From a bacterium (GTDB taxonomy: Bacteria; Elusimicrobiota; Elusimicrobia; UBA1565; UBA9628): a stretch of DNA of 64,000 nucleotides. This document shows, in pieces, positions 3,803 through 30,220 of the stretch (its first letter is position 1; each line of letters opens with the position of its first letter). A program made the translations under genes and the position numbers. The notes under the pieces are model-generated. The model was given only the letters and a program-made list of their open reading frames with translations, was not told the DNA's origin and did not search any database. The stretch is from NCBI GenBank assembly GCA_021822495.1, contig JAKAQO010000005.1:62001-126000 (forward strand), in the 5' to 3' direction.

Positions 3803-3804
3803 TT

Positions 3805-11759: not shown

Positions 11760-11782
11760 CGCTCATTAGCTTAGCAAAATAA

Positions 11783-11798: not shown

Positions 11799-11803
11799 AT
11801 TAT

Positions 11804-11812
11804 TGATAGAAT
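11804..11812 (+). promoter_or_regulatory. Extended -10 element for the permease gene at 11821
   Basis: TGA-TAGAAT is an extended -10 box ending 8 bases before the ATG at 11821. A start at the TTG at 11803 would lie within this promoter, so ATG 11821 is preferred. The weak -35 (TTGGGG at 11783) is formed by the degenerate repeat. Confidence 0.4.
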
Positions 11813-11820
11813 TACCTAGC

Positions 11821-12780: not shown

Positions 12781-12803
12781 AAAAGGGGACTGTCCCCTTT
12801 TTT
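12779..12803. terminator. Single palindromic repeat acting as bidirectional terminator
   Basis: AAAAGGGGAC-T-GTCCCCTTTTTT forms a GC-rich stem followed by T-runs on both strands. It sits exactly between the convergent ends at 12780 and 12802, which is the layout of a two-way Rho-independent terminator made from one repeat unit. Confidence 0.7.
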
Positions 12804-13395: not shown

Positions 13396-13398
13396 GAC

Positions 13399-13761: not shown

Positions 13762-13820
13762 GACTTTTTCTTTTTGATTTCCTCTCTGAACGCCTTATTC
13801 TATGCAAAACCCCGCGAAAG

Positions 13821-14198
13821 TCAAGCGTTCAAACGGCGTTCCAGCGCCTTGACCCGCGCCAGAAGAACTTCTCGTTCAAAGGGCTTGGTCACGTATTCAT
13901 CCGCGCCCCGGTTGTATCCGCGAATTTGCTCGACAAGCAAAGCCCGGACGGTCAGCATGAGAATCGGCAATTGGGCAAAACGAGGATCTGTGCGAATGCG
14001 CTCGGTGAGTTGAAGTCCGTCAAGCCTCGGCATATTAAGGTCAAATATTCCCATGTCAATTTTATTTTTTTCCAGCTTTTCCCAGCCTTCCTGGCCGTCC
14101 ACGGCCTCGACCACCTCATAGCCGTCTTCTTCAAGCATCATGCGAAGGATGTCCCGCACGCTCGCATCGTCATCCGCGATTAGAATTTTTTTAGCCAT
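13821..14198 (-). CDS. Single-domain response regulator
   Basis: 125 residues. DDD acidic pocket (residues 9-11), phosphoacceptor in GIFDLNMPRLDG (about residue 54), conserved Thr in MLTVRA and Lys in VTKPF. The extended C-terminal helix (VLLARVKALERRL) is typical of receiver domains that are usually joined to an output domain, here missing. It has a GGAGG ribosome-binding site and lies 2 bases after the winged-helix regulator. Confidence 0.9.
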   Translation of the reverse strand: MAKKILIADDDASVRDILRMMLEEDGYEVVEAVDGQEGWEKLEKNKIDMGIFDLNMPRLDGLQLTERIRTDPRFAQLPILMLTVRALLVEQIRGYNRGADEYVTKPFEREVLLARVKALERRLNA

Positions 14199-14200
14199 CG

Positions 14201-14893
14201 CTATTTTTTCCTCCGCTGGATGACATTGGCGCTGTCCAACTCCCAGACATAACCAATGCCGTGAACGGTCTTGATATAGAAGCCTGATTCCCCCAGCTTT
14301 TTACGCAGGGCCTCGATATGTTTGTCAACGGTCGAGGCTTGAACGCTATCGGAGTCAGAACGAATCATCTGAAGGAGAGTTCTTCTTTCCAAGGCAACCC
14401 CGGGGCGTTCCAGGATAAACGCGAGGAGATCAAACTCCGTTTTCGTCAAATCGAGGGGTTTTTGATTTAAAACCGCAATTCGCCCCAGGCGGTCGATTTC
14501 GATTTTTCCGTCTTGAGATTTCAGCGTTCCAACAGCTTCCGGTTTAACGAAGCGTCGAAACACCGCCTCAAGCTTAGCCGACAAAAGCTCTCCCGGCATA
14601 TCCGGAGAAACCACGTCATCGGCCCCGGCGTTTAAAAGTTCGATGAGGCGCGCCGCATTTTGAAGACGGGAAGAAACTAAAAGAGAAAGCCGTGTTTCTT
14701 TCTCCCGAATAAGGTTTAAGCTTTGGGCATCGGGCAAAATTGATTCGAAGATAATGACGGTTCCCGGGGGCTTCGGCAAAAGGGCCAAAGCGCTTTTAAA
14801 ATCCGTGCTTCTTAAAACTTTCCAGCCCCGGAGTAAAAATGCCTCCTCCCAGTTTTTTCCCAGCAATTCCGGCCCCGCGATTAGGATTTCCAT
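14201..14893 (-). CDS. OmpR-type winged-helix regulator with degenerate receiver (Glu at phospho-site)
   Basis: 230 residues. The C-terminal 100 residues are a full Trans_reg_C winged helix (LTKTEFDLLAFIL..., STVDKHIEALRKKL, IKTVHGIGYVWEL). The N-terminal half has receiver length and pattern but lacks the paired acidic residues after the first strand (AGPELLG instead of DDD). The strand that normally ends in the phosphoacceptor Asp reads VIIFESILPD, with Glu in its place, and the conserved Lys is also gone. It is probably a phosphorylation-independent, perhaps constitutively active, DNA-binding protein. First gene of the leftward signalling block. Confidence 0.85.
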   Translation of the reverse strand: MEILIAGPELLGKNWEEAFLLRGWKVLRSTDFKSALALLPKPPGTVIIFESILPDAQSLNLIREKETRLSLLVSSRLQNAARLIELLNAGADDVVSPDMPGELLSAKLEAVFRRFVKPEAVGTLKSQDGKIEIDRLGRIAVLNQKPLDLTKTEFDLLAFILERPGVALERRTLLQMIRSDSDSVQASTVDKHIEALRKKLGESGFYIKTVHGIGYVWELDSANVIQRRKK

Positions 14894-15071: not shown

Positions 15072-18000
15072 ATGCGAAAAAAGAACATTTGTGAACTCGT
15101 CTCCGAAGGCGCCCAACAAAAACGTTCCCAAAAATTAGGAAGATGGGGACTCTCCCTAACTCTCCTCATTTTTCTCGCCGCCCAAGCAAAAGCACAGGTG
15201 CAAAATATTATCTCGACGCCGACCTATCCAGCCAACGGCTCTTATTTTAATCTGCAAAACCAAACGCCGAACTTTAACTGGTTCGGCCCTTCCACAACGA
15301 CAATTCAATTAGCGACTTCTCCTGTTTACAATCTTCAGGTCGGCACTGACCCCACCTTTGCCGCCGGCCTTGTTATTAACGTGCAAATTGCCGCCGTGAT
15401 CCCAAGCACCGGCCTCCCAAACGCTTATGGCTCCTACCTGTCTGGAACTTCTCTAACCAATAACACCACTTATTATTGGCGCGTCTATGCGACAGATAGC
15501 TCCGGAGGCGAAAGTATGTCTTGGAGCACATTTAGCTTTGTGACTGATTTTGCCCCTGATTCTAACCTTTCAGCATCTTACTCGGGAACGTTGAACTCTT
15601 TAGGACAGACTACTCCAGAAAACCAGTTTGTTTCTTTATCCAATGGCGCGACATCTCAATTATCCGTTTCGGCTTCATTCAGTGGGATTGCGGTTTCAAG
15701 CTCCGCCGTACCGTTAACCGGGGATAGCGCTAGTTTTACACAAGGAACCAGCGGCTACGGTGTCCTCTATTCGACCAATTCCGGCACGACCTGGGAGGAT
15801 TACTCCTCATTAGGCATAAATGTTCCAGCAGCTGGCGGTGGAGCTACGATCTGGAATTTAGCTGTTTTTAACGGTTTTCTCTACGCTGGTCTAAGCAACG
15901 GTTCTATCATTCACACAAATAATGGAACGAGTTGGAATACGGATTATACTGGTTCAAATTATGGAATTGGTGGTTTTACCATATATAAAAACACTCTTTA
16001 CGCCTCAAACCACGACGGTAGTAATGCGTATATGGTCTCAATTACCAACGCTGGAACGGTCAACCGAGCCACTGTATTCAACTCTGGAGCGGGTGTGAGT
16101 AAACCAGTCGTTCTTAATAATACTCTTTTCGTCGAAGCTTCTTATACTGGAATCCCCGCAGGAGATCCTGGAGCTGGCAACGCTGGAGGCGGAATTTTTG
16201 CGTCACAAGACGGCATCCATTGGGTTCAAACGTCCGGTGTTGGCGTATGTAGCGACAACTTTGACCAGCTTTTTACATTTAATGGAGAGCTTTATGCAAA
16301 TGTACAATCAGGGGGTTTTGGATGCAGCGGGTTATTCGTAAGCCCAGATGGGGTCAATTGGACAACAATTGACAATCAAAGCGTTCCAGGAACTGTTAAT
16401 ACCGCCACAGTTTTTAATGGAAAACTTTATATTGGAGTAAACAATGGAGGCTCAAACCCGCTCCTCTATTCATCCACTAATGGGCAAAGCTGGTCAGCGG
16501 ACAATGGAACACTGACCCAACCTTCCTTGGGGGGCAGTGTCAACGATCTTAATGTGGTCAATGGCAAGCTTTACGCCGGTATTTCCACGACCACTGCCAG
16601 AATATATGTGACCGAGGATGGAAACAACTGGTTTCCATCAATTTCAGGCGGCACAGGACAAACAGGAGCAGGAGCGCCCGTTTATTTTAATGGGAATTTT
16701 TATGCCGCCGCTGGTCCCGATATCATCACCATCTCGCCCTTTAGCGCCTCTCTACCTGGTTCTAATGGAGAGCCTTCTGGAACGCTTTCTGCCGTCAGTC
16801 CGCAACTTGCCGCTTCAACCACGACAACTACTTGCGGCGGAGTGTCTCCTTGCAACGCAACCAACCAAGTCATATTTACCGCAAGCGATATGGCAGGAAA
16901 CACCCTCATGTCTGGTCCTTATGCTATTTTAGTTGACACCGAGGTCGGGGTCGCCATTTCAACGCCCAGCTATCCGGGAACGCCGACAGTGGGACAGTCT
17001 CCTCCGGGGACAGTCCCTTACGTGAACGTTCAGCCCAATTTCGACTGGATTGGGCCTTCAACCGGGGTCGCTTCGGCTTTGCAGCAGCCCGCCAATTTTT
17101 TTCTTGAGGTCTCATCCAACGATCCAACTTTTTCGCCTTCTAATATTGTGATTAGCACCTCGACTCCGGTCGTCGTTTATTCCACCAATGTCCCCACCGC
17201 CAACGGAGCCTACCTTTCGCCTTACGTGCTGGGAAATAACACCACTTACTATTGGCGCATCTATATAAAGGATAATCTGGGCGGAACCAGCCCCACATCC
17301 CCAACCTATAAATTTATCACGGATTTTGCTCAACCCGCAGTGTCCACCTCCAGCTTTCAGAGCATCAATGCCCAAAGCTCGCTCTTACCGGAAAATCAGT
17401 TTAACGATCTCGCTTCGGGCGTCACCGCCCAAATTACGGTCCAAGATACTAATTCAGGCCTTGCCGTTTCGACCAGCGCGCTTTCTTTCGCGGGGGATGG
17501 ACATGATGACCCTCCAATAACCTCGGGGTTTGGAATTATCTATTCCACAAATGCCGGGTTCTCATGGATAGTGCAGTCCACCTCCGCTGAAGCCAACAAC
17601 GGCAGCGCGGTGGGAACGGGAATTCGCTCATTAGCTGTATTTAATGGGGATATCTACGCTGGGGATTACAGCGGTCATGTCTATTACAGCGCCGACGGCA
17701 ACACCTGGAGCGCGGGAACTCCCGGGACAAACCCCATTCAATCTTTAAGCGTCTTCAATGGAATCTTATACGCCGGAGACGGCGGAGGATATATTTACTC
17801 AAGTTCAAACGGCAGCACTTGGAGTACAACTAATGGCGGCTCTGCCGTTGGGGCAGGCATACTCGCAATGACCGTCTTTAACGGACAACTTTATGCCGGA
17901 GATAATTTTGCCCGCGTTTTTGTCATGGATGCAAGTGGAAATTGGCATAACGTAGACGGCGGAACTGTTGGAACGAGTTCCATTGAATCCTTGGCCGCGT

Positions 18001-21000
18001 TCAACGGCCAACTCTATGCCGGAGATTATTATGGAAATATCTATGCCAGCACAAACGGAAGCTCTTGGAACAGTCTTGGAACTATCGGCAACTCCGGCTC
18101 TCTAATTGAGACCATGGCTGTTTTCAATGGAAAGCTTTACGCTGGAGACAGTAATGGGTTTATTCATTTTAGCGCTAATGGAGCGTCATGGACCACCAGT
18201 AATAATGGAAGCGCTGTTGGATCTGGAATTACCGCTTTAACTGTCTTTAACGGCCAACTTTACGCTGTAGACGCTCTTGGTTATGTTCATATCAGCGCAG
18301 ACGGAGTTCATTGGAACTCAATCAAGGTCGCTACGCAAGGAACGGGATTAGCTGGATTTAATGGAAACCTCTATGTTGGCGACTATTACGGCGCCGTCTA
18401 CAGAGCCATCCCTCTTGCCGCGACGCTTTCCGGGTCCGACGGGACAACGGCCAGCCAAACCTTGTCGGCAAACAACCTCAATCTCGTTCAATCCACCACA
18501 ACCGCGACCTGTGGCGGGACTTCGCCTTGCAGCGCGACCGATCAAATCATATTTACCGCCTCTGATTTAGCAGGAAATGTCGTCGAAAGCGGGCCGTACG
18601 CGATTTTGGTAGACACCACCGTGGCGCCGGCGATTTCGACGCCTTCCTATCCTTTAAACGGAGCTTACCTCAATTTCAACCCTAATTTTAACTGGACCGG
18701 ACCCTCAACCAGCATCGTCTCCGGGCTTTTGGCCCCTTCCTATTATCAACTTGAGGTTTCAAGCAATGATCCCACCTTCGCGACGGTCTTCGTCAATATT
18801 TCCACGCCCATTCCGCCGGTCAATACCGGTCTTTCCACCGATAACGGCGCCTATATTTCTACTTATACGTTTGCCAATCTGACCACTTATTATTGGCGCG
18901 TAAGAACTATTGATGGGTTCGGCGGAACCAGCCCCTGGTCCACAACCTTTAGTTTTACCACTGATTTCTCAAGTCCAACGGCCGTCGGCGGAAGTTTCGC
19001 GACGCTCAACAGTCTCGGGGGGCTTGTTCCAGAAAATCAGGTCACGGTTCTCCAGTCAGGCGTCACTGCTCAGATTAATATTACCGATATCGGTAGCGGG
19101 TTCTCCGCCTTTAATTCCTCAAATTATTCCGTCAGGTATTCCACCAACGCCGGCCTCTCCTGGATTTCAGAACCCTTTTCCGCGCTCGCTTTTACGGGCT
19201 CTATCGGCCAAACCTCGACTCAAACCTTCACGGCCTACGGTCTTAATCTCGCCGCCTCAACCAATTCTTATGTCTGCGGGGGAATTTCTCCTTGCGGCGC
19301 AACCAACCAAGTTGAATTTACTTTTTCCGATCAGGCCCTCAATTTCAGCACGGCCGGCCCTTTTGCCGTCATTGTAGATACTCATTCAACCGATGTTTTG
19401 GTCTCCACGGCCAATGTCGCGCCTTTGGGAATCCCCCAAAACACCTCGGTTGCCTTTATCCGCCTGACCTTGAACAGTCTCACTGGAACCGCACCCTGGA
19501 CCGGGCTCACGGTTCAAAGGCTCGGCAGTGGAACGGACGCGGATGTTCAAAACGTCGCCATCTACCGTGATAACGCGGGAACCGGAATATTTTCTCCCTC
19601 GGATACTCAAATCACCCAAAATGCGGTCTTTTCGGGGGGAATCGTCAATTTAACAATGACCAATCCCGAGAGTATTACGACCTCGACCAAGACCTATTTC
19701 CTTGTCTATACCGCGGCCCCGGGGGCGCTGGTCGGAGATGGGCTCGCGGCGGAAATTACATCAACCGCCTCTTTTACCTTCAGCAACGGATACCAGATGA
19801 GTTCGGCCCAGACGACGATTTATCCCTTGATCTCCAGCACCGCCACCGTGGTCGACGGTCCCAATTATCTCTACATCACTCCGGCGAGCCAAGCCCCCAA
19901 CGATGCCCCGCCCGGAACAGCCAACATCGAGATGCTTTCTTTAAAAGCCTATACGAATACTGGAACAAGCACTCTTTCCAAAATTGTATTTCATCTCCTA
20001 GGAACCGGGGCTTCTAATGACATCAGCTCCATCTCCATCTACAGAGACTCAAACGGCACTGGGGTTTATGCCCCCAATGACAGTTTGGTGACCAGCGGCT
20101 CGGACTCCTTTTTTAACGGAGTCTCAACCGTCGCTTTCACGACCACCATCGCCTCCGAAACCGTGACCACCTCTCCCATTTATTATTTCGTCCTCATCAG
20201 CTTGTCTCCGAACGCGCCATTAGGAGATACCTTAGGAATATCTATTTCCACTACCTCGGACGTCGAGCTGATAGACGTCTTAGATACGACTACTTTTACG
20301 ACCAGCCCCGCGGCCTCCTCTCTTTTGACCATTGAATACATCAATACCTTGAACGTTCAGGGAGTCAACCAAATCCCGTCCTCCCTTTTACAGGGTCAGC
20401 AATACGCCATTTTAAAAGCGAGTTTTACGGTTTCGACTGGGGAAACTTCGTTTAACGGAATCACTATCACGCGCATAGGACTCGGCCATGATTCGGATGT
20501 TTCGGCCGTCAGGGTGTGGCAGGACCCCGCTCCACCCGAGACCTTTAACCCCGCGACCTTTTTGCAGTTGAGTTCAGGAACCTTTGTGAACGGAAACGCG
20601 CAGCTAAACTTCCCGCTTCAAACCTTGTCCGCCGGAACCACCTACGTCTATTACGTGACCTATAACATTAGTCCCACCGCCCTTCAGGGAGACACCTTGG
20701 GCGGAAGAATTACCAGTAATCTCGATATCTCAGACACCAATCCCGGAACGACGATTGTCGGCAATTTCTCGATTAATTCGGCCACTTCCCCCGTGGTTCC
20801 AACAACCGCAGGGCTTTTTGTCAGCGCTCAAAATGTCGCCCCGAGTGATCTCTTGCAAGGCGCGACCAATCAACAAATGCTCAATTTGACGATGGATACC
20901 ACTCAATACTCAGTTCTTTTGGGAGCTTTGACCTTTAATTCCTTGGGAACGGCTTCTTCTTCCGATATTTCGCGGGTGGAAGTCTACCAAGACCTCGTGG

Positions 21001-22706
21001 GAAACGGAATTTTAAATACATCGACCGACCCGCTTTTAAGCGCGGTTTCATACCCCTTTATCTCGGGAACCGGCATCATTCCCTTTTCGCCGGGAATCAC
21101 CATCAGCACTATTCCCATCCGGCTTCTGGTCGCGGTAGACGTTTCAACCGGAGCCAATTATCTCAACAATGATTTTGGAATCGGAATTTCAACTCCCGCC
21201 AATATCTCAATCAACGCGCCCAATTTTGTCGTTCCCTCAACCACCACATTCCCGGCCGATTCAAGTATTATTCCCATTACGAAAGCCCCGGATGTCATGA
21301 GCGTTTTCCCGACTTCCTTGATGGATGTCAACGGCGTCGTTCAAGGCCAAAACGCGCCGGCGGCGAAACTGAGTTTAGTCACCCAGCACAGTTCCGTGAC
21401 CTGGACGACGATTTCCGTTCAAAGAAGCGGCACCCTGCCGGATTCGGGAGTTGATTCCGTCAATATTTATGACGACGTAGATCAAAATGGTGTTCTTGAC
21501 TCTTCGGATGTCCTAGTGGGAAGCGCGCCCTTTGTTTCCGGAACAGCCAATATTTCTTTCTCCACCGCGCAACTGGTCAGCCCCGCAGGAGCGGATTATC
21601 TCATTACGCTTCAAATTGACCCTAACGCTACTCCGGGAGACACCATTGGAATTTCCTTGTCCGGCGTGTCCAACTTTACCGTGTTGCCCCCGGACACCGT
21701 CTCGGGTTCAAGCCTTCCGTTTAACTCGGCCTTAGGGCCGGTTCTCAATATTAAAACTCCCACTCAACCCATCGTCACTTTCCCGAACGGAGATTATTCC
21801 AGCTCCTTTGATTCGGTCGGCTTTATCTGGTATTCAACGGTCGCCGTCGGTTCCATTTCCAGCGCGGCCTATGCCGTGGGAACGACTCCCGGGGGAACCG
21901 ATATCGCGCCGTATACCGCCATTCCTTTTGCGGCGTCTAGTTTCACCGCGACCAATCTTCTCCTCTCTAACGGGGCCACTTATTATGTCTCGGTGGAAGC
22001 CACCTCTAACTACGGCTTTACCAGCCCGCCGGGAATCAGCCCCGGGTTTTTGGTTGATTTAATCACCCCAGGGTCGCCGACCAATCTCAGCGCCAATGTC
22101 GGCGTAAGCTCGATTTATCTGACCTGGGATCCGGGAACAGTCGGGCCCTCAGGCGCTTCGGGATATCTTCTCGAATATTCAGACGTCGAACATCCGACCT
22201 GGTATAACGCCAAGACCGGAGCGGTCACCGCCCTGGCCGCCGGCCCCCATGGAACTCTTTCGGCCAATTTCATTCCCTCTTCGCCGTTTTTGTTCAACAA
22301 TCCGCCGCAAGGAACCCTTCTTTTCCGCGTTAGTTTAGTCAACGGCGCGGGGGTTCAAAGCGCCCCGTCCAATTCGATCAGGGTTCTCTTTGGAACGCAG
22401 TCAAACGCTGGAATATCGAACGTCTCATCCTATCCCAATCCCTTTAACTCAAATTCCGGAGTCGCGACTATCGTCTACACCTTGGATACTCCGGGGAATG
22501 TCTCCATTCAAATCTACAGCGTCTTTGGGAGTCTCGTCAAAAGCCTCTCTTATTCTGGTGGAAGCGTGGGGGGGCAAGCCGGCGTCAATACCGTGACCTG
22601 GGACGGAACCGACTCAGGCGGACGCAAAGTCTCCAAGGGCATCTACATCGCCGTCCTCAAAGCCAATGGTATGAGCGTCCAATACAAAATCGGGGTCAAT
22701 CACTGA
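15072..22706 (+). CDS. Giant secreted repeat protein with T9SS/FlgD-like C-terminal domain
   Basis: 2,544 residues. Signal peptide (LSLTLLIFLAAQAKAQ, residues about 27-42). Then three related modules beginning ISTPTYP/ISTPSYP near residues 45, 630 and 1188, each an Ig/Fn3-like unit (FNWFGPS...TYYWRVY...FVTDF). The first two are followed by propeller-like repeats of the type VFNGKLYAGDSNG...GTSW. From about residue 1443 come five units of about 157 residues (starts near 1443, 1600, 1758, 1915, 2073), each with a QG/PG..N..ML...L motif. Two Fn3-like units follow, and from residue 2447 a YPNPF...WDGTDSGGRKVSKGIY domain resembling type IX secretion sorting or FlgD-Ig domains. Very rich in Ser, Thr, Asn and Gly, as in adhesins. 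AAGG directly abuts the ATG, an abnormal spacing. The PorV-like gene 660 bases downstream suits a secretion partner. Confidence 0.9.
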   Translation: MRKKNICELVSEGAQQKRSQKLGRWGLSLTLLIFLAAQAKAQVQNIISTPTYPANGSYFNLQNQTPNFNWFGPSTTTIQLATSPVYNLQVGTDPTFAAGLVINVQIAAVIPSTGLPNAYGSYLSGTSLTNNTTYYWRVYATDSSGGESMSWSTFSFVTDFAPDSNLSASYSGTLNSLGQTTPENQFVSLSNGATSQLSVSASFSGIAVSSSAVPLTGDSASFTQGTSGYGVLYSTNSGTTWEDYSSLGINVPAAGGGATIWNLAVFNGFLYAGLSNGSIIHTNNGTSWNTDYTGSNYGIGGFTIYKNTLYASNHDGSNAYMVSITNAGTVNRATVFNSGAGVSKPVVLNNTLFVEASYTGIPAGDPGAGNAGGGIFASQDGIHWVQTSGVGVCSDNFDQLFTFNGELYANVQSGGFGCSGLFVSPDGVNWTTIDNQSVPGTVNTATVFNGKLYIGVNNGGSNPLLYSSTNGQSWSADNGTLTQPSLGGSVNDLNVVNGKLYAGISTTTARIYVTEDGNNWFPSISGGTGQTGAGAPVYFNGNFYAAAGPDIITISPFSASLPGSNGEPSGTLSAVSPQLAASTTTTTCGGVSPCNATNQVIFTASDMAGNTLMSGPYAILVDTEVGVAISTPSYPGTPTVGQSPPGTVPYVNVQPNFDWIGPSTGVASALQQPANFFLEVSSNDPTFSPSNIVISTSTPVVVYSTNVPTANGAYLSPYVLGNNTTYYWRIYIKDNLGGTSPTSPTYKFITDFAQPAVSTSSFQSINAQSSLLPENQFNDLASGVTAQITVQDTNSGLAVSTSALSFAGDGHDDPPITSGFGIIYSTNAGFSWIVQSTSAEANNGSAVGTGIRSLAVFNGDIYAGDYSGHVYYSADGNTWSAGTPGTNPIQSLSVFNGILYAGDGGGYIYSSSNGSTWSTTNGGSAVGAGILAMTVFNGQLYAGDNFARVFVMDASGNWHNVDGGTVGTSSIESLAAFNGQLYAGDYYGNIYASTNGSSWNSLGTIGNSGSLIETMAVFNGKLYAGDSNGFIHFSANGASWTTSNNGSAVGSGITALTVFNGQLYAVDALGYVHISADGVHWNSIKVATQGTGLAGFNGNLYVGDYYGAVYRAIPLAATLSGSDGTTASQTLSANNLNLVQSTTTATCGGTSPCSATDQIIFTASDLAGNVVESGPYAILVDTTVAPAISTPSYPLNGAYLNFNPNFNWTGPSTSIVSGLLAPSYYQLEVSSNDPTFATVFVNISTPIPPVNTGLSTDNGAYISTYTFANLTTYYWRVRTIDGFGGTSPWSTTFSFTTDFSSPTAVGGSFATLNSLGGLVPENQVTVLQSGVTAQINITDIGSGFSAFNSSNYSVRYSTNAGLSWISEPFSALAFTGSIGQTSTQTFTAYGLNLAASTNSYVCGGISPCGATNQVEFTFSDQALNFSTAGPFAVIVDTHSTDVLVSTANVAPLGIPQNTSVAFIRLTLNSLTGTAPWTGLTVQRLGSGTDADVQNVAIYRDNAGTGIFSPSDTQITQNAVFSGGIVNLTMTNPESITTSTKTYFLVYTAAPGALVGDGLAAEITSTASFTFSNGYQMSSAQTTIYPLISSTATVVDGPNYLYITPASQAPNDAPPGTANIEMLSLKAYTNTGTSTLSKIVFHLLGTGASNDISSISIYRDSNGTGVYAPNDSLVTSGSDSFFNGVSTVAFTTTIASETVTTSPIYYFVLISLSPNAPLGDTLGISISTTSDVELIDVLDTTTFTTSPAASSLLTIEYINTLNVQGVNQIPSSLLQGQQYAILKASFTVSTGETSFNGITITRIGLGHDSDVSAVRVWQDPAPPETFNPATFLQLSSGTFVNGNAQLNFPLQTLSAGTTYVYYVTYNISPTALQGDTLGGRITSNLDISDTNPGTTIVGNFSINSATSPVVPTTAGLFVSAQNVAPSDLLQGATNQQMLNLTMDTTQYSVLLGALTFNSLGTASSSDISRVEVYQDLVGNGILNTSTDPLLSAVSYPFISGTGIIPFSPGITISTIPIRLLVAVDVSTGANYLNNDFGIGISTPANISINAPNFVVPSTTTFPADSSIIPITKAPDVMSVFPTSLMDVNGVVQGQNAPAAKLSLVTQHSSVTWTTISVQRSGTLPDSGVDSVNIYDDVDQNGVLDSSDVLVGSAPFVSGTANISFSTAQLVSPAGADYLITLQIDPNATPGDTIGISLSGVSNFTVLPPDTVSGSSLPFNSALGPVLNIKTPTQPIVTFPNGDYSSSFDSVGFIWYSTVAVGSISSAAYAVGTTPGGTDIAPYTAIPFAASSFTATNLLLSNGATYYVSVEATSNYGFTSPPGISPGFLVDLITPGSPTNLSANVGVSSIYLTWDPGTVGPSGASGYLLEYSDVEHPTWYNAKTGAVTALAAGPHGTLSANFIPSSPFLFNNPPQGTLLFRVSLVNGAGVQSAPSNSIRVLFGTQSNAGISNVSSYPNPFNSNSGVATIVYTLDTPGNVSIQIYSVFGSLVKSLSYSGGSVGGQAGVNTVTWDGTDSGGRKVSKGIYIAVLKANGMSVQYKIGVNH
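16989..17020. repeat. Repeat core inserted in the giant surface-protein gene
   Basis: GGGACAGTCTCC (16991) and GGGGACAGTCCC (17007) lie in frame and are read VGQSPPGTVPY. The two sister modules of the same protein have only a short NGAYL/NGSYF loop here, so this is an insertion into the second module. Confidence 0.75.
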
Positions 22707-23374
22707 TATGAAAAAAAGGGGACAGTCCCCTTTTTGGGGGAAATCTCGAAAAAGGGGACTGTCCCCTTTTTTGGCCGCCCGATGCGGCGCTCAAGCCCCA
22801 TTTCCTCTCTTATCTCTTGCTCACGCTCACCACCATACACTATTTCTTTATAAAAATAAGCCCTCTCCTGGGCAGAATTTCCAAGAGATAAATAACCTGG
22901 GCTTTCCTCCAGAAAAGGGGACTGTCCCCTTTTTCCTGTATAGAATCCATAGCTGGACCAAGAGTAATCTTCCGGTTTTTTCACGATGGCTGCGCGAACG
23001 GGGTTTAACTCAATATAACGGCCACAGAAAAGCAGGCTTCTCTCCGTTGGCAACAAGACGCTTTTATAACGCCCCTGCCAGAGATGACCCACCAGAGAAT
23101 TTTTTCCTCGGAAATAATCGGAATATCCCTGCAAAAGTCTTTGCATCGCCTTACCCAGGTCTTCCGCTTTTTGAACTTGAGCTAAGAAATGAACATGATT
23201 TGGCATTAGGACATAATGATACAGGTGAAAAGGATTTTTTTTCTTCGCCCATTTCAGAAGAGCTAAGAATTTTTCATAATCTAAATCTTCCTGAAATATC
23301 TTCTGTCGGTTATTCCCACGAGCCATCAGATGATAAAACATTCCCTCAAGCACATTTCTCCTCTGTCTTGGCAT
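22700..23374 (-). CDS. REP-associated tyrosine transposase (RAYT, Y1_Tnp/IS200-like family)
   Basis: 224 residues. The HUH metal motif is PNHVH (His60 and His62). The catalytic Tyr is in LQGYSDYFRGK (Tyr84 or Tyr87), followed by the family signature GHLWQGRYKS and ELNPVRA. Such single-copy enzymes nick and rejoin palindromic REP elements. The gene has a strong AAGGAGG ribosome-binding site. Its own frame contains three copies of the local repeat: KRGQSPF near residue 155 and two KKGTVPFF copies forming the C-terminus. Its stop overlaps the giant gene's stop by 7 bases tail to tail. No IS ends or target duplications are visible. It is the obvious candidate to mobilise the repeats in this window. 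Confidence 0.93.
   Translation of the reverse strand: MPRQRRNVLEGMFYHLMARGNNRQKIFQEDLDYEKFLALLKWAKKKNPFHLYHYVLMPNHVHFLAQVQKAEDLGKAMQRLLQGYSDYFRGKNSLVGHLWQGRYKSVLLPTERSLLFCGRYIELNPVRAAIVKKPEDYSWSSYGFYTGKRGQSPFLEESPGYLSLGNSAQERAYFYKEIVYGGEREQEIREEMGLERRIGRPKKGTVPFFEISPKKGTVPFFSYQ
22711..22772. repeat. Palindromic repeat pair encoding the RAYT C-terminus
   Basis: Cores at 22718 (A centre) and 22754 (T centre), inverted, 36 bp apart, lying between the convergent stop codons. Both are translated on the minus strand as KKGTVPFF. Confidence 0.92.
22911..22935. repeat. Single repeat core inside the RAYT gene
   Basis: AAAAGGGGACTGTCCCCTTTTT with its core at 22917 is read in frame on the minus strand as GKRGQSPF, in a loop region well after the catalytic motifs. 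Confidence 0.9.
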
Positions 23375-25032
23375 ATCACCCCTCCTTTCCGCCTAGATTC
23401 TCTGCTATATTTCATACGGCAGAAACACAAAAAAAGTTCCCTCAAAAAAAGGGACAGTCCCTTTCTCGGTTAAAATTCCTAAAAAAAGGGACTGTCCCTT
23501 TTTTCTTATTTCTACTTCTCTCTTCCATATCGGCTTCCGCAGCCAGCAGCTTCTATGCCGGTTCTCCTAACGAAATTTTCCAGTTCGGAGCTGACGCCAG
23601 GGCCATGGGAATGGGAAACGCTTATACCGCAATCGCTGGCGGCGCGTCTTCTCTTTACTACAACCCCGCAGGACTCGGCCTTCTCAATGGTCCCGATATC
23701 AGCGCCATGCAGGCCAGTCTCATTGGCGGCGCGGCTTATGAAAATTTATCCTATGCCCAGAATTTTTCAAAGATGCCTGGAGCTTGGGGAGTTGAAGCCC
23801 TCAACATGGGCGTTGGAGGGGCCGAGCAAAGGGACTCTCAAAATAATTTGACCGGAAGTTTTGGCTTTCAAGAAACCGGATATGGAGCGGGATTTGGATT
23901 GCGAAATGTCGTCATTCCAGGTTTATCATTGGGAGGATCTTTCCAAGGGCTCAGCCGAAGCTTAGGTGGAAGTTCTTCCGACATGCTCTATGGAGCCAAT
24001 CTCGGCGCCCAATACGGCCCTTTTTTTGATAATATGGTGACCGCCGGACTCGTTCTCCAAAACGGCTTTAACGGAGCGCAAAACACCTTTGACCGGTTGC
24101 CTACGGTTCTACGCGCGGGCCTGGCCGTCACTCCCATCGACAATCTTCTTATCTCCGCGGACTATGGAAACGACGGAGATTATGGAATAGGCGCGGAATA
24201 TAGAATATGGATGTTCGCCCTGCGAGCCGGATATATGCCGGAAGGCCTCACCTTTGGCGCTGGAATCTATTATAAATCAATGGAAGCCGATGTCGCGATG
24301 GTCAATGATCCGATTTTTGGAATGGGGGAGCGGTTTTCGATCAACTACCGATTCGCGGGGAAGAAAAAAGAAAAGCCTCTCCAGACTTATACCAACAGTT
24401 ATCTTGACGCCGCGAAAAAAGAACTTAATATTCGCAATTACCTCAGCGCGCAACTGGCTCTTGAAGAAGCGATGGGGATTGATCCAACCCAGATTCCCCA
24501 AATATGGAAGGAAAAACTCAAACTTCTTCAAGCGTTCAATCAATATTTAGATCTCAAGAATCGACCGGATGAGGTTAAGACTCTTCTCGCTAATGATCCG
24601 GCGGCGATACTCGCCCAAAAATCGATTTTTTCTTATTTAGAGGGGCGTGACGGCGATGCGATGATTTGGGCCTCCGTGGCCGCTGGAACGGCTCATAAAT
24701 CCATGCCCTATATTGACTTTATCAAGACAATGGCTTATCTTACGAGTATGAAGGTTTCGGAAGGAGATTTGTTGCCGCCGGCCGAATATGTTTCCAAAAA
24801 AATGGAGACTGCTCTTCAGGACATTTATCAAAAACGCTTCGCGAATTCAGTCAGAGATTGCCAACAGGCCATTGTGGTCAACCCGAAAGAATCTTCCGCC
24901 TGGACTCGTCTTGGCAGCGCTTATTTTGCCTGGGGACACAAACAAGAAGCCAAAAAGGCTTATCAAAAAGCCCTGGAGCTCGATCCCAAGGATGAAAATC
25001 TTAAGAAATTCATGGAGATCTATATCAAATGA
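23368..25032 (+). CDS. PorV/UPF0164-like outer-membrane protein with C-terminal TPR region
   Basis: The mature part starts near position 23540 (ASSFYAGSPNEIFQFGADARAMGMGNAYTA), the conserved opening of the PorV/PorQ/UPF0164 beta-barrel family. GGASSLYYNPAGL follows. The barrel extends to about position 24360, then a helical part ends in a clear TPR (WTRLGSAYF...ALELDPKD). A signal peptide is present (FLFLLLSSISASA) but no ATG or GTG precedes it in frame downstream of the transposase gene. The nearest in-frame start is TTG 23368, and the start region is occupied by a repeat pair. I give that TTG as the formal start with low confidence. PorV proteins carry cargo out through type IX secretion in Bacteroidota; here the neighbour cargo would be the giant protein. 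Confidence 0.75.
   Translation: MAYHPSFPPRFSAIFHTAETQKKFPQKKGQSLSRLKFLKKGTVPFFLFLLLSSISASAASSFYAGSPNEIFQFGADARAMGMGNAYTAIAGGASSLYYNPAGLGLLNGPDISAMQASLIGGAAYENLSYAQNFSKMPGAWGVEALNMGVGGAEQRDSQNNLTGSFGFQETGYGAGFGLRNVVIPGLSLGGSFQGLSRSLGGSSSDMLYGANLGAQYGPFFDNMVTAGLVLQNGFNGAQNTFDRLPTVLRAGLAVTPIDNLLISADYGNDGDYGIGAEYRIWMFALRAGYMPEGLTFGAGIYYKSMEADVAMVNDPIFGMGERFSINYRFAGKKKEKPLQTYTNSYLDAAKKELNIRNYLSAQLALEEAMGIDPTQIPQIWKEKLKLLQAFNQYLDLKNRPDEVKTLLANDPAAILAQKSIFSYLEGRDGDAMIWASVAAGTAHKSMPYIDFIKTMAYLTSMKVSEGDLLPPAEYVSKKMETALQDIYQKRFANSVRDCQQAIVVNPKESSAWTRLGSAYFAWGHKQEAKKAYQKALELDPKDENLKKFMEIYIK
23443..23503. repeat. Palindromic repeat pair at the start of the PorV-like gene
   Basis: Shortened cores GGGACAGTCCC (23451) and GGGACTGTCCC (23488), inverted, 37 bp apart. 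The right copy is read KKGTVPFF directly in front of the signal peptide core. Confidence 0.88.
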
Positions 25033-25095
25033 AAAAAAGGGGACAGTCCCCTTTTGGGGACATTTCTTTAAAAAAGGGGACAGTCCCCTTTTTTC
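25032..25095. repeat. Direct (tandem) repeat pair
   Basis: Cores GGGGACAGTCCCC at 25039 and 25076, both A-centred: the only pair in direct orientation, but with the same 37-bp spacing. It fills the gap between the PorV-like stop and the ribosome-binding site of the kinase-FliF-FliG gene. Confidence 0.9.
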
Positions 25096-25108: not shown

Positions 25109-27622
25109 ATGGACATATTAATGATTATTTTTATCCCAAGTCTTTTTCTTGTGTTGGGAGCCCTGATGTTTATCGTCAGCCGGGTCATGGAGTTTTCACA
25201 ATCCAACCGTTATTTCGCAAAACAACGAGGAAACAGTCTTATGTTTACACGTTTCATGACTCAAATCGCCATAGCGAAAAGCCAACTGGGAAAAAGGGCC
25301 CAGGAACTGGAAGCCCTCTCCATGCGTCTTCAAATGAACAATGAAGAGCTCGCGAGGCTCAACAATCTCAAGATGAAATTTCTTTCCATGGCGGTTCATG
25401 ATATTCGAAACCCCTTGACCGCCATTACCGGCTATAGCGATATCCTGTCTCGCAACAAAAATATTGGTCCGAAAGAACAAGTCCTCTCGAAAATGATCTT
25501 GACCGCGACGCGGCAAATCAACCACCTCATGGGCGACTTGACCGATCTGGCCGTCATCGAAGCGGGAAAATTCAAGATGGAAATGGCGCCCTTTGATCTG
25601 GCCGGACTCATCCAAGAAGTCGGCGCGACGCTGGCTCCTGGAGCCTCTAACAAAGGCGTCATTCTTTCTGTTCTGGAACCTCCGTCGGGAATCATCATCA
25701 CCGCCGACCGCTACCGCATTTGGCGCGTTTTGACGAATCTTTTAGGCAACGCCGTCAAATTTACTCCCTCGGGCGGCCGCGTTGAACTGAGAGCCGAAGT
25801 CGCGGCGGGAATGGCCATGATTTCCGTTCAAGATAATGGTCCCGGAATTCATCCCACCGAACGCCGAAAAATTTTTGAAAAATTCTACCAGTCAAAGCAC
25901 ATCAAGGATGAAAAGGCCCGCAAGGGCGGCTGGGGGCTGGGACTCGCCATCGCCCAAGAAATTGTTCAAGCTCACGGAGGGGAAATTGGGGTTGACAGCC
26001 GCGGTCTCGGGCATGGATCCACTTTTTGGGTTCGCATTCCTCTTAAAGCTCGGCGCCCCATTCGCTCTAGCCCCATGCGCCTTTCTCTTGCTTTAATCGG
26101 GTTTTTAGCTCTTTCTTTTATTCCGAAAAAAACTGGGGCTCAAACTGTTCCCTTTCTTGAAAAATCCAAGTTCGAGAAATCCCTAGAAACCAAGGTGGAC
26201 GGGGTTCTCCTCAATATCCTGGGGCCCAATCGGGCCAAGGTCATCATCAACGCGACCTTAAACTTTACCAAGACGGAAAGTTTTCAAACCGAAGGCGCAA
26301 GCGTCACAACCACAAAAACCTCGGGGCTACCTTATCTCTGGCAAGAGCCCAGCAAAACGGCGCAGCCCGAAGAACTTCTTCCTGGAGTGCCGCTTGATTC
26401 CGGAGGCCCTGCTCTTCCCATGCCACCGCCGTCAATTAAGGGATATAAAAAAGAAGATTCCTTTCCCGCCGAATTTATCAAGAGGTTGGATGTCACTCTC
26501 ATTTTGGACAATTCCGTTAAGGGAAATCGCAGCGCCGAAATCGGCAAAATTACATCCGACCTTCTCAATCTCAATCCCAAACGGGGGGATTCTTTAACCG
26601 TGGTCCACACCGAGTTTTCTCCTATTTGGAAAACCGTCTGGTATTCTCCGGCCACTGCGGGCATGCTTCTTAAATATATTTTGACCGGGTTTCTCTTTTT
26701 CATGGCCTTGATCGTCATCGCTATCGGATTCATAAAAATCGCCAACGCCATGCGCATGATGGCTAACGCCCAAGCTCAGCAAATTTCCATGGAAATGAAG
26801 GGACTCGATGGCGAGGGGGGAAGCGGACCAGGAGGGCTTTTAGGACACAATACGCTCATGATTGGGGATCAAAAATCAGGAGAAAACGTCCCTGAGAATA
26901 AAAATGAACCCGTCATGTTCGACGTAGGGATGGATCAGGTAGAAACCCTGGCTCAAATGCTTCTCCCCGAACCGGCCAATAACATTGCCATTGTCGCGTC
27001 CCGCCTAACCCCGGATGTTTCGAAAAGACTCATTGAGGCCCTTCCCCCGGAACTGGCGACGCAAGTCATCAGCCAACTCGCTCGTCCGCGCTTTATCGAT
27101 CCGGAAATTATCGTCAACTTAAAGGAAGAGCTGGAACGGCGTCTTTCCGGCGCGGTGGGAGGCGTTCATTATCTCTCGGAACTCATGTCGGCCGCCAGCC
27201 AAAAGAGGCGCCATGAGATGCTCGAAGCCGTTCGCGCGCAAAACCCGAACCTCGCGGAAGAACTTAGAAAAAGAGTCTTTTTCATCGAGGATCTTTCAAA
27301 GCTGAGCCAACAGGAATGGTCATACCTCTTATCCTTGGTCACCTATCAAGAATGGAGTGCGGCCCTTCATGAGGGACCCCAAGTGGTCGTCGAAGCCATT
27401 AAGCAAAATCTATCGGAAAAAGCCTGGGGGGTTCTTAGCGAAATGATTGAAACGGCTTCTCCCAGCATAGAACAAGCGGAAATAGCGCAAGACAAAATCG
27501 GTCAAAGCGTCTCGGAACTCATCAAGGAACAGAGAATCAAGACCATCGCACCACAATTGGGACTTCAGGTTCATGAATCTCCAATTGAGGAAGAAAAAGG
27601 CGCAGAAAGCAACAAAAAGTAA
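25109..27622 (+). CDS. Histidine kinase - FliF (C-terminal) - FliG fusion protein
   Basis: 837 residues from ATG 25109, which has a TTGGAGG ribosome-binding site. (1) Residues 1-25 are a membrane helix. A coiled coil leads to a complete histidine kinase: H-box HDIRNPL (about 97), N-box NLLGNAVKF, DNGPGI and GGWGLGLAIA, ending near 315. (2) From Met323 comes a hydrophobic or signal-like segment, then a FliF C-terminal-type region. VDGVLLNILGPNRAKVIINATL is FliF-like at its start, and KRLDVTLILD and GDSLTVVHTEF are FliF-like at its end. (3) TM helix about 519-542. (4) From about 608: FliG middle domain (LPPELATQVISQLARP, VGGVHYLSELM) and FliG C domain (AEELRKRVFFIEDL). Topology is consistent: kinase inside, FliF part in the periplasm, FliG inside. 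FliF ring-building domains 1-2 are missing. There is no stop or ribosome-binding site before Met323. A lost stop codon or internal restart remains possible. A MotA/MotB pair follows. Confidence 0.85.
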   Translation: MDILMIIFIPSLFLVLGALMFIVSRVMEFSQSNRYFAKQRGNSLMFTRFMTQIAIAKSQLGKRAQELEALSMRLQMNNEELARLNNLKMKFLSMAVHDIRNPLTAITGYSDILSRNKNIGPKEQVLSKMILTATRQINHLMGDLTDLAVIEAGKFKMEMAPFDLAGLIQEVGATLAPGASNKGVILSVLEPPSGIIITADRYRIWRVLTNLLGNAVKFTPSGGRVELRAEVAAGMAMISVQDNGPGIHPTERRKIFEKFYQSKHIKDEKARKGGWGLGLAIAQEIVQAHGGEIGVDSRGLGHGSTFWVRIPLKARRPIRSSPMRLSLALIGFLALSFIPKKTGAQTVPFLEKSKFEKSLETKVDGVLLNILGPNRAKVIINATLNFTKTESFQTEGASVTTTKTSGLPYLWQEPSKTAQPEELLPGVPLDSGGPALPMPPPSIKGYKKEDSFPAEFIKRLDVTLILDNSVKGNRSAEIGKITSDLLNLNPKRGDSLTVVHTEFSPIWKTVWYSPATAGMLLKYILTGFLFFMALIVIAIGFIKIANAMRMMANAQAQQISMEMKGLDGEGGSGPGGLLGHNTLMIGDQKSGENVPENKNEPVMFDVGMDQVETLAQMLLPEPANNIAIVASRLTPDVSKRLIEALPPELATQVISQLARPRFIDPEIIVNLKEELERRLSGAVGGVHYLSELMSAASQKRRHEMLEAVRAQNPNLAEELRKRVFFIEDLSKLSQQEWSYLLSLVTYQEWSAALHEGPQVVVEAIKQNLSEKAWGVLSEMIETASPSIEQAEIAQDKIGQSVSELIKEQRIKTIAPQLGLQVHESPIEEEKGAESNKK

Positions 27623-27730
27623 AAGAAGAAAAAAAAGGGGACAGTCCCCTTTTCCTCATAAACTTAAGGTCGGGGACAGTGCCGTCCCTAAGAATTATGA
27701 AGAAGAGGCACAGTCCCCTTTTTTTCTTCG
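27622..27730. repeat. Composite repeat, copy 2
   Basis: Nearly identical to 14921-15028 over about 105 bases, with cores at 27637, 27672 and about 27706. It separates the kinase-FliF-FliG stop from the coiled-coil gene and ends about 45 bases before that gene's ATG, as copy 1 does before the giant protein gene. Confidence 0.9.
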
Positions 27731-27775
27731 TCATTTCTTCATGATTAAATGCCGCTTTTGTTCTACCCTATAACT

Positions 27776-28720
27776 ATGAGTGAAAGTCCAAAAGGTTCTA
27801 TCTTTTCCTCATTAAGGGCATTAGAGGAAGTTCTGGAAGAAACTCCCACTGCAATACCTACTCCGCAAAACGTTTCTCCCGCTCCTGTTCAAGCCGCACC
27901 ACCGCCACCCACTCCCACGCCCATGAGTTCAACGCCGCCCGTTGATTCTTCAAGCGAAGCTCTCAAATCCGTGGAAGCAAAGATTGAAAAAATCGATCAA
28001 AAAATTCAGGAATTAGGAAATCTCCCAATCTCGCCAAATCTTGATCGCATTGAAGCTCTTGAGAAAAACCTACAACAGATGCAGGAGCGGGCCATCCAGG
28101 CAGAAGTTGCGCTCAGAGAACGAGAAAAATCCCAAGAAGCCGCAAGACGTGAGACAGAATCTCTTCTTCAAAATCTAGCATCCCAAAGACGACTCGAAGA
28201 ATCCGACAGGCAAATGAAGGAGAACCTGTCCTACTGCCGGCACCGCATCGAGGAATTAGAAGAGCGGCAAGCCTCTCTCAAAATTTCAGATACGCAACAG
28301 TCGGAGCATGAGTTTAAATCGCTCTTAAAAAATTTTATGGAACAAATCGACCTTAAAACAGCCCCGATTTTAACGTCTCTCCTTGAACTCAAGAAAGAGA
28401 ATCAAAACCGCGAAAAAGAGAGTCTCAATATGGAAAAAAGGATAGGCCATCTTGAAACCAAAACCGCTAATAAAAGCCAAGTTGACGCTCTGCGCGAAGA
28501 CTTCCTCCATTTAAAACAGTCCGTGGAAAAAATTAATTTGGAAACATCGGAAAAGCTCGATAAAATAACCGCGGCATTAAGCCTATTGTCGCTTAAACTC
28601 CACAAAGATAAGGCAACAGAAGAATTAATCATTCTCGATAAAGAGTTTCAAAAAATACACTCTATTCTCAACGCCAATATTTCCAACTCTCCCAAACAAA
28701 CAGGAATAGCCCCTGATTGA
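27776..28720 (+). CDS. Proline-rich coiled-coil protein of the motor cluster
   Basis: 314 residues from ATG 27776 (an upstream in-frame ATG at 27749 lies near the end of the repeat). Not recognised as a family. Residues 1-60 are low-complexity Pro/Ala/Thr-rich (PAPVQAAPPPPTPTPM). From about 65 to 290 it is almost entirely heptad coiled coil rich in Glu, Lys and Leu. No signal peptide or membrane helix, so it should be cytosolic. Position between FliG and MotA suggests a structural or signalling link in the motor, but that is context only. Confidence 0.75.
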   Translation: MSESPKGSIFSSLRALEEVLEETPTAIPTPQNVSPAPVQAAPPPPTPTPMSSTPPVDSSSEALKSVEAKIEKIDQKIQELGNLPISPNLDRIEALEKNLQQMQERAIQAEVALREREKSQEAARRETESLLQNLASQRRLEESDRQMKENLSYCRHRIEELEERQASLKISDTQQSEHEFKSLLKNFMEQIDLKTAPILTSLLELKKENQNREKESLNMEKRIGHLETKTANKSQVDALREDFLHLKQSVEKINLETSEKLDKITAALSLLSLKLHKDKATEELIILDKEFQKIHSILNANISNSPKQTGIAPD

Positions 28721-28758: not shown

Positions 28759-29496
28759 ATGGAACTGACATCGATTATCGGCCTTGGAGCAATTTTAACT
28801 CTAACCGCAATTGGGCTCGCCACGGGAGGGCTCCCGGCGGTTTTCATCAACTGGCACGGAATCGGCATCGTCCTGGGCGGCACTTTTTGCGCCTTGATGA
28901 TTAACACTCCCCTGGATATCTTGCTCAGAACTGGAGCGGCTATAACAGATTTAGTTTCAGCCGATCCTTACGTCGATCGCATCGCCCTTGTGGACGCGAT
29001 CATGGCCTTGGCTCAAGAGGTTCAATCCCGAGGAATCAGCGCCTTTAACAACGTCAACAAAACGGTTGCCGCTGGGTATCTCGCTTATGCCGCTCAAATT
29101 GCCGTCGAATACAATAATCCTGAAACCCTCCGGCAGGTCCTGGAAAATGAGATTATTCAAAACTCCGATTTACAAAATGAAGCGGTCAACGTTTTTAGAA
29201 CCGCAGGAATTTTGGCGCCGATGTTTGGGCTTTTAGGGACCTTGATCGGAATTGTCGAAGTTCTGCGCCAAATCGCCAACCCCGCTCAAGTAGGCTCCGC
29301 CATGGCAGTCGCCATTACTACCGCTTTTTATGGTATTGCGACGGCTAACGTTTTTTGCGTGCCAATAGCTGGGAAATTGAGAATCAGGTATTGGAGAGAA
29401 ACGCAGGCTAAAACCATGGTTTTAGAAGGCGTCTATGAAATTCTTCAACGAACGCCCACCGTCATCATCTCCAGGAAACTAAAATCTTATTTATGA
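28759..29496 (+). CDS. motA: MotA-type stator protein (proton channel)
   Basis: 245 residues. Four-helix MotA layout: helices 1-2 at about 5-50, a cytoplasmic loop, then helix 3 (TAGILAPMFGLLGTLIGIVEVL, with the conserved Pro and Gly) and helix 4 (ITTAFYGIATANVFCVPIAGKL, with the second conserved Pro). With MotB it would use the ion gradient to push on a rotor. In the cytoplasmic loop the usual GLLALE glutamate reads GISAFN, so one stator charge known to face FliG seems missing (alignment by eye). It has its own promoter and is followed by motB after one repeat. Confidence 0.9.
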   Translation: MELTSIIGLGAILTLTAIGLATGGLPAVFINWHGIGIVLGGTFCALMINTPLDILLRTGAAITDLVSADPYVDRIALVDAIMALAQEVQSRGISAFNNVNKTVAAGYLAYAAQIAVEYNNPETLRQVLENEIIQNSDLQNEAVNVFRTAGILAPMFGLLGTLIGIVEVLRQIANPAQVGSAMAVAITTAFYGIATANVFCVPIAGKLRIRYWRETQAKTMVLEGVYEILQRTPTVIISRKLKSYL

Positions 29497-29521
29497 TAAA
29501 AAAGGGACAGTCCCCTTTTTC
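29497..29521. repeat. Single repeat core between motA and motB
   Basis: AAAAAAGGGACAGTCCCCTTTTT with its core at 29504, starting just after the motA stop. No ribosome-binding site fits between it and the motB ATG. Confidence 0.88.
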
Positions 29522-29527: not shown

Positions 29528-30220
29528 ATGAGACGATCACGGCACGAAGACCTCGAAAATCAACTCGCGAAATCCGCCCAATGGGCTATTACCTACGGCG
29601 ATTTCATGAGCTATCTCATGATTTTCTTTCTCATCATGTTCTCTTTTACGCTCTCCAAATCCGGAGGGAAAACCACGGAAAACGTTAAATATCAGGAATC
29701 CTTGATTAAAATCCAGAAAGTCTTTGGGGGAAAAGGAAGCTCCCTGGATTACGATCGCCTCATTAAGCGCGAAAAAGAAGAGTCCATGGTGACCCAACTC
29801 AAACAGGCTCTGGACAAGAAAGACTTGTCCAAATACGCGAAAATAGAAACCTGGGATAAAAAAATTCGATTAATTCTCGCTAGCGCGGTTCTTTTCGATT
29901 CAGGGCGAGCGACCTTGGCCCCGCGCTCGGAAAAAATTCTGGCCGCCGTCGCCCAACAGCTTAAGACTTTGGACAACCCCATTCAAATTGAAGGCCATAC
30001 CGACAACGTGCCAGTTCGCGGCGGACGTTATAAGTCCAACTGGGAACTTTCGATGGCGCGGGCTTATTCCGTGCTGGTCTTTTTGGAAAAGCAGGGCATC
30101 GCGCCTCAGCGCTTATCCGCGATTGGCTACGGCAAGTATCATCCCATTGCCGACAACAACACCGCGGAAGGACGCGCTAAAAATCGTAGAATCGAGATAG
30201 ATTTATTACGGACAGAATGA
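29528..30220 (+). CDS. motB: MotB-type stator protein with OmpA-like peptidoglycan-binding domain
   Basis: 230 residues. One N-terminal helix with the proton-carrying Asp in the family context TYGDFMSYLMIFFLIMFS (about residue 28). A linker follows, then the OmpA-like domain from about residue 115 (VLFDSGRATL, IEGHTDNVPVRGG, SMARAYSVLVFL, NRRIEIDL), which anchors the stator to peptidoglycan. The retained Asp argues for a working ion channel. ATG 29528 is preferred over the in-frame TTG 29522. It directly follows motA and precedes a HEAT-repeat protein by 13 bases. Confidence 0.93.
   Translation: MRRSRHEDLENQLAKSAQWAITYGDFMSYLMIFFLIMFSFTLSKSGGKTTENVKYQESLIKIQKVFGGKGSSLDYDRLIKREKEESMVTQLKQALDKKDLSKYAKIETWDKKIRLILASAVLFDSGRATLAPRSEKILAAVAQQLKTLDNPIQIEGHTDNVPVRGGRYKSNWELSMARAYSVLVFLEKQGIAPQRLSAIGYGKYHPIADNNTAEGRAKNRRIEIDLLRTE

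What the first reader, a model, noticed from the sequence alone, without database searches (positions are those of the whole stretch)
25109..27622. One reading frame joins a histidine kinase, a FliF C-terminal region and FliG
The protein contains a full kinase core (HDIRNPL, NLLGNAVKF, DNGPGI, GGWGLGLAIA). After Met323 it has a membrane segment, the FliF beta-collar pattern, a second membrane helix, and FliG middle and C domains. FliF-FliG fusions are known as working laboratory variants in Salmonella; a natural one carrying its own sensor kinase is not something I know of. The FliF ring-building modules 1-2 are absent, so the part should not build a normal MS ring. A motor part that is itself a kinase would link rotation or load sensing directly to phosphorylation.
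Basis: partly seen in the sequence, partly recalled or inferred. Interest (0 to 1): 0.88.

Follow-up and report, generated by a model that had tools for sequence, protein, structure and literature searches.

The report
Kinase-plus-rotor gene of a non-flagellar motor
In a bacterium in whose genome no flagellum genes were found, one gene encodes a sensor kinase followed by a stripped-down flagellar rotor protein beside matching stator genes; the arrangement is real and conserved, but an internal signal peptide suggests that the chain is cut into two proteins.

Summary
Window 25109-27622 is one 837-aa frame: one membrane helix, a complete histidine-kinase core, then the FliF RBM3/collar domain, a membrane helix and FliG M+C. 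It is no assembly error: the same fusion, open across the joint, occurs in 14 genomes of three families of the order. Two points of the interpretation fail. (1) The joint is a Sec signal peptide ending in A|Q. Relatives in other families carry kinase and FliFG as separate genes, and their FliFG begins with this same signal peptide. One genome nested inside the fused clade has split again exactly there, with an ATGA overlap. So signal peptidase I probably cuts the chain into a membrane kinase and a FliF-FliG rotor. (2) Natural FliF-FliG fusions are already known (Chlamydiaceae). What is new is larger than the fusion. A conserved operon (PorV-like outer-membrane protein with TPR, kinase, FliFG, coiled coil, MotA, MotB, usually a surface protein with a type IX-like tail) occurs in genomes without detectable FlhA or FliM/N; FliFG-type proteins occur in 120 of 294 sampled genomes of the phylum. 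It looks like a flagellum-independent MotAB/FliG rotary motor with a dedicated kinase, perhaps serving type IX-like secretion or gliding (inferred, untested).

The parts
25109..27622 (+). fused gene: histidine kinase - signal peptide - FliF RBM3/collar - TM - FliG M and C (837 aa)
25109..26074 (+). kinase moiety, aa 1-322: one N-terminal TM, coiled coil, HisKA (aa 88-153), HATPase_c (aa 200-313); no periplasmic sensor domain
26075..26140 (+). internal signal peptide, aa 323-344, predicted signal-peptidase I site A344|Q345
   Evidence: A at -1 in 14/14 fused proteins, Q at +1 in 13/14; homologous to N-terminal signal peptides of unfused FliFG
26141..26620 (+). FliF-like RBM3 with shortened collar, aa 345-504, periplasmic
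26654..26743 (+). second FliFG membrane helix (about aa 516-545)
   Evidence: (helix 171-223 of the model), sequence
26942..27154 (+). FliG_M (aa 612-682); FliM-binding EHPQR motif not kept
27227..27541 (+). FliG_C (aa 707-811), stator-facing domain; R281 position usually Lys, D288/D289 acids lost
27749..28720 (+). coiled-coil protein of the operon, low conservation
28759..29496 (+). MotA (stator A subunit)
29528..30220 (+). MotB with channel Asp and OmpA-type peptidoglycan-binding domain
23524..25032 (+). PorV/PorQ-family outer-membrane protein with C-terminal TPR; conserved gene upstream
15072..22706 (+). giant surface protein (2544 aa) with T9SS type A-like C-terminal domain / FlgD_ig; conserved in the order
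14201..14893 (-). OmpR-type regulator whose receiver is degenerate; related gene lies after motB in relatives
13821..14198 (-). CheY-like single receiver; candidate phospho-acceptor for the kinase (inferred)

Best explanation
The gene encodes the rotor and the dedicated kinase of a flagellum-independent, MotAB-driven motor. Shown by sequence: the chain is translated as one polypeptide with the order N-out TM, cytoplasmic kinase, signal peptide, periplasmic FliF RBM3/collar, TM, cytoplasmic FliG M+C. It sits in a conserved operon with MotA, MotB, a coiled coil and a PorV-TPR outer-membrane protein. Inferred: signal peptidase I cuts at A344|Q345, giving a membrane kinase and a separate FliFG. 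FliFG assembles through RBM3 into a ring, with its FliG C domains as the track for MotA, and MotB anchors the stator to peptidoglycan. No FliM/FliN switch was found, so regulation would run through the kinase, which has no periplasmic sensor but a conserved TM/juxtamembrane segment, and a response regulator. The output would be mechanical work at the outer membrane, most likely on the PorV/type IX-like apparatus (secretion or surface motility). Fusion makes the two products from one translation event, in 1:1 amounts at one place.
For: Domains by Pfam, profile and fold. Fusion in 14 genomes (13 complete ORFs plus one cut by the contig end) of three families. Separate but adjacent orthologous genes in families f4 and f13, where FliFG starts with a Sec signal peptide ending A/G|Q. 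Split member G034 nested in the fused clade (support 97/93), HK stop and FliFG start overlapping as ATGA. FlhA in 2/57 and FliM/N in 1/57 relatives, neither in the window's genome. Stator: MotB Asp and MotA P173/P222 conserved. PorV family 2.3e-20, T9SS tail 5.6e-5, SprA-like translocon in 53/57. Kinase TM/juxtamembrane about as conserved (0.61) as the coil (0.62), slightly below the catalytic domains (0.71, 0.75), in 28 orthologs.
Against: Cleavage and rotation are not shown; no experiment exists. The window's own signal peptide has KK in its c-region (IPKKTGA|Q), which may slow cleavage. The MotA-FliG charge pairs of E. coli are not kept (MotA E98 is R/K/N/Q; FliG D288/D289 lost), so the interface must work otherwise. 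The link to type IX secretion rests on neighbourhood, a sub-threshold SprA match (95 of 200 bits) and a GldM search without a type IX control genome. The C-terminal TPR and PorV domain could serve something else.
Confidence: 0.62

Rival explanations
1. The chain stays intact: each rotor subunit carries its own cytoplasmic kinase, and stator load or rotation changes kinase activity directly. The hydrophobic stretch after Met323 is then an uncleaved TM helix.
For: One frame conserved over three families with one inferred origin of the fusion. The window member has a weaker c-region (KK). Kinase and FliFG both face the cytoplasm, so the topology allows it.
Against: Short hydrophobic core with A at -1 in 14/14 and Q at +1 in 13/14, the same as in the N-terminal signal peptides of unfused orthologs. 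Secondary split in G034. In f13 and f4 the kinase works as a separate protein.
Confidence: 0.23
2. The MotAB/FliFG set is a static or sensory envelope complex (load or surface sensor, proton-gated anchor) rather than a rotary machine that does work; the kinase reports its state.
For: Canonical FliG/MotA torque charges not conserved; a kinase in every class A operon examined with a complete 5' side except the second copy in G083; receivers nearby.
Against: Ion-channel residues of MotA and MotB are intact; FliG_C fold kept at 1.4-1.7 A, including the match to MotAB-bound FliG 8ucs; other rotor-stator pairs also vary in charge pattern (own knowledge).
Confidence: 0.12
3. Decaying flagellar remnant after loss of the flagellum.
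For: The window's genome and most relatives lack FlhA and FliM/N.
Against: Conserved operon order, paralogous copies (three in the window's genome), 120/294 genomes of the phylum, strong third-position bias of substitutions.
Confidence: 0.02
4. Assembly or sequencing artefact that removed a stop codon near 26070.
For: Metagenome-derived relatives; two genes in some relatives.
Against: The same open joint in independent assemblies of three families.
Confidence: 0.01

Closest known systems
Flagellar rotor FliF + FliG (MS ring / C ring)
   Same: RBM3/collar fold, TM, FliG M and C folds; MotA/MotB stator next to it
   Different: RBM1, RBM2, FliF tail and FliG_N missing, one chain, FliM-binding motif lost, no FliM/N, no export gate, rod or hook genes found nearby
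Chlamydiaceae FliF-FliG natural fusion (PMC4768692)
   Same: natural in-frame FliF-FliG_M fusion in non-flagellated bacteria
   Different: [quoted passage not shown] here RBM3 and FliG M+C are present, with MotAB and a kinase
Engineered FliF-FliG fusions of Salmonella and Vibrio (PMC4768692, PMC11481574)
   Same: FliF C-terminus joined to FliG; Vibrio fusions form MS rings
   Different: laboratory constructs; no kinase, no signal peptide at the joint
Type IX secretion / gliding motor GldLM of Bacteroidota
   Same: 5:2 proton motor that works on an outer-membrane PorV/SprA apparatus and surface adhesins (PMC8986121 and own knowledge)
   Different: here the stator is MotAB-type with a FliG-type rotor; GldM not found
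Bradyrhizobium fbcH cytochrome b/c1 polyprotein (own knowledge, not verified here)
   Same: two membrane proteins made as one chain and separated at an internal signal peptide
   Different: unrelated proteins

Membership tests
Two-component histidine kinase | HisKA with H-box, HATPase_c with N, G1 and G2 boxes | tested here: met
   HDIRNPL, NLLGNAVKF, DNGPGI, GWGLGL
FliG | FliG_M and FliG_C folds | tested here: met
FliG | FliG_N domain that binds FliF | tested here: not met
   no separate N domain; the weak FliG_N hit overlaps FliG_M; the region before it is disordered
FliG | EHPQR FliM-binding motif | tested here: not met
   H126, Q128, R160 absent in all 16
FliG | charged torque residues K264, R281, D288, D289, R297 | tested here: not met
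   only R281 is usually kept, as Lys; no acid at D289; D288 is Q or E
FliF | RBM1 and RBM2 (YscJ_FliF, PF01514) | tested here: not met
   no PF01514 match; chain too short
FliF | RBM3/collar | tested here: met
   Z 14, 2.4 A
Bacterial flagellum | export gate FlhA and switch FliM/N in the genome | tested here: not met
   none in G000 (94.7% complete); controls positive
MotAB stator | MotB channel Asp, MotA P173/P222, peptidoglycan-binding OmpA domain | tested here: met
MotAB stator | MotA R90/E98 FliG contacts | tested here: not met
   R90 is Q/H/R, E98 is N/Q/R/K/A
Type IX secretion system | SprA translocon, PorV, sorting domain | tested here: inconclusive
   all three hit, SprA and PorV of the window below the curated cut-off; sorting tail at the cut-off
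Type IX secretion system | GldL/GldM motor | tested here: inconclusive
   no match, but no type IX genome among the controls
Signal-peptidase-processed polyprotein | cleavage at the internal site | not testable with these tools
   only the motif and comparative evidence

The most novel reading that the evidence does not exclude
A phylum-wide, flagellum-independent rotary machine built from MotAB and a one-piece FliF(RBM3)-FliG rotor, with its own kinase as the switch, that drives a type IX-like outer-membrane apparatus: either a derived or an early-branching relative of the flagellar motor doing another job. In one order the kinase and rotor come as a polyprotein.
Probability: 0.4. Interest if true: 0.93.

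Novelty: new variant of a known kind. Interest (0 to 1): 0.82.

Why it matters
FliG-MotA torque generation is known only from flagella (own knowledge; nothing else found). A conserved MotAB/FliFG operon without export gate, switch or filament would be a minimal rotor-stator pair on which torque generation, kinase-based control and the origin of the flagellar motor could be tested. It would also suggest what powers an outer-membrane apparatus in a phylum where GldLM was not found.

Tried and rejected
Missing stop or assembly error: rejected, the open joint recurs in independent genomes. Internal re-initiation at Met323: no Shine-Dalgarno-like run before it, and several fused relatives have no Met near that point. 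Remnant of a flagellum: rejected by conservation and copy number. Literature on FliG, MotA, SprA, type IX secretion or gliding in Elusimicrobia(ota) found nothing on this system. The phylum is not named by the tools; Elusimicrobiota is my guess from the sequence style and from the related family of 1.3-1.7 Mb genomes without the system, and it is untested. Search for the fbcH precedent found no paper. The GldL search had no positive control. The SprA-like ORF gave no Pfam or PDB sequence hit. The second structure-prediction job was not used.

Full report
Observation. The frame 25109-27622 encodes 837 residues without a stop. Pfam finds HisKA, HATPase_c, the end of YscJ_FliF_C, FliG_M and FliG_C. 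Of 16 relatives, all match FliG_M and YscJ_FliF_C and 15 match FliG_C. A profile of the mature part finds solved FliG chains at 3.8e-34 and a FliF chain at 1.3e-4. An AlphaFold2 model (mean pLDDT 67.6; domains mostly about 70-90, linkers below 40) superposes residues 1-161 on the RBM3/collar of FliF (2.4 A over about 100 residues, Z 14) and residues 259-469 on FliG M+C (Z 16.9). The FliG_C part alone fits at 1.4-1.7 A, including FliG bound to MotAB (8ucs). RBM1, RBM2 and a separate FliG_N domain are missing.

Is the fusion real? Yes. Two same-genus assemblies (L009, L010) and genomes of three families carry the same fusion with an open joint, 14 genomes in all. Between close relatives, substitutions at the joint lie mostly at third codon positions (25 against 9 and 6 in 33 codons for L009). 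The fused sequences form one group in a tree, with a single split member, G034, nested inside it (97/93 with its neighbour; the branch below the whole group has 80/99). In G034 the kinase stop and the FliFG start overlap as ATGA exactly at the signal peptide.

What is the joint? In families f13 and f4 the kinase and FliFG are separate genes. There FliFG begins with an ordinary Sec signal peptide ending in A|Q or G|Q, followed by the same LPLDDKARYE-like start. In the fused proteins the same element lies inside the chain: A at -1 in 14 of 14, Q at +1 in 13 of 14, mostly small or aliphatic residues at -3, a short hydrophobic core before it. I therefore predict cleavage by signal peptidase I at A344|Q345. 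This is inference from motif and comparison; it has not been measured. If cleavage occurs, the kinase and the rotor are made together but act as two proteins.

The operon. In the three families of the order the gene order is: giant surface protein, PorV-TPR, kinase::FliFG, coiled coil, MotA, MotB. In f13 it is usually PorV-TPR, kinase, MotA, FliFG, coiled coil, MotB. So the kinase is a standing partner of the motor and the fusion is a local variant. The kinase has one N-terminal TM and no periplasmic sensor domain; its TM/juxtamembrane segment is 61% majority-identical in 28 orthologs, against 71-75% for the catalytic domains. A degenerate OmpR-type regulator and a CheY-like receiver lie next to the operon in the window (13821-14893), and related regulators lie after motB in f1 and f2 members. 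In the window's genus the operon is followed by a HEAT-repeat protein and a CHASE2 cyclase.

No flagellum. FlhA was found in 2 and FliM/N in 1 of 57 relatives, none in the window's genome (94.7% complete); the control genomes were positive. FliFG-type proteins occur in 120 of 294 sampled genomes of the phylum (59 of 90 genera), often as paralogs; the window's genome has two more. A few of these matches, as in flagellated G051, may be ordinary FliG (356-aa frame).

Stator and rotor surface. MotA and MotB match solved flagellar stators. The channel Asp of MotB and MotA P173/P222 are kept. MotA R90/E98 are not, FliG H126/Q128/R160 (FliM site) are not, and of the FliG torque charges only R281 is usually kept, as Lys. 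The ion channel looks functional, the rotor-stator contact is remodelled, and the FliM site is lost, in keeping with the missing FliM.

Possible work. The PorV-family protein, the T9SS-like tail of the giant protein and a SprA-like ORF in 53 of 57 relatives, with no GldM found (weak control), suggest that this motor acts on a type IX-like apparatus. That is a hypothesis from neighbourhood.

Known relatives. Engineered FliF-FliG fusions and the natural Chlamydiaceae fusion are known (PMC4768692, PMC11481574), so the FliF-FliG joint as such is not new. I found no report of a kinase-FliF-FliG gene or of a MotAB/FliFG operon without a flagellum in the papers searched; subscription papers and preprints were not available.

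Verdict. Observation confirmed; interpretation partly supported; a conserved non-flagellar MotAB/FliFG motor with a dedicated kinase is the larger finding.

Noticed in passing
L055 (window's genome, C15:140000-159900), 4152-14386: A second FliFG system in the same genome: PorV-TPR, kinase, FliFG, two more kinases, with MotA, MotB and two receivers divergent. A third (L056, 3073-11741) has a 1080-aa coiled-coil protein.
   Followed up: partly
L058 9557-11458, L059 9598-11655, L060 8035-10875: In another FliFG subclass the rotor protein carries a C-terminal TPR domain, a different natural fusion of FliFG (Pfam-tested for L059 and L060).
   Followed up: partly
L068 (G237, f13) 5714-10906: Two FliFG genes around one motA, a tandem duplication of the rotor gene.
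   Followed up: no
L075 14552-15923: Two consecutive MotB-like genes after one MotA.
   Followed up: no
window 22700-23374 (-) and 25025-25093, 27623-27723, 29489-29520: An IS200-like (Y1) transposase gene overlaps the 5' extension of the PorV ORF, and GGGGACAGTCCCC palindromes sit between the operon genes; they are translated as KKGTVPFF in ORF extensions (REP/RAYT-like).
   Followed up: partly
window 27749-28720 and f13 orthologs: The coiled-coil protein of the operon is poorly conserved except for an N-terminal KxSIFxS-like motif followed by a proline-rich stretch; possibly a docking peptide.
   Followed up: no
G000:C4:399500-409500 (L078) 1550-7300: A 1916-aa SprA/Sov-like ORF (TIGR04189, 2.2e-27, below cut-off), with matches in 53 of 57 relatives.
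   Followed up: partly
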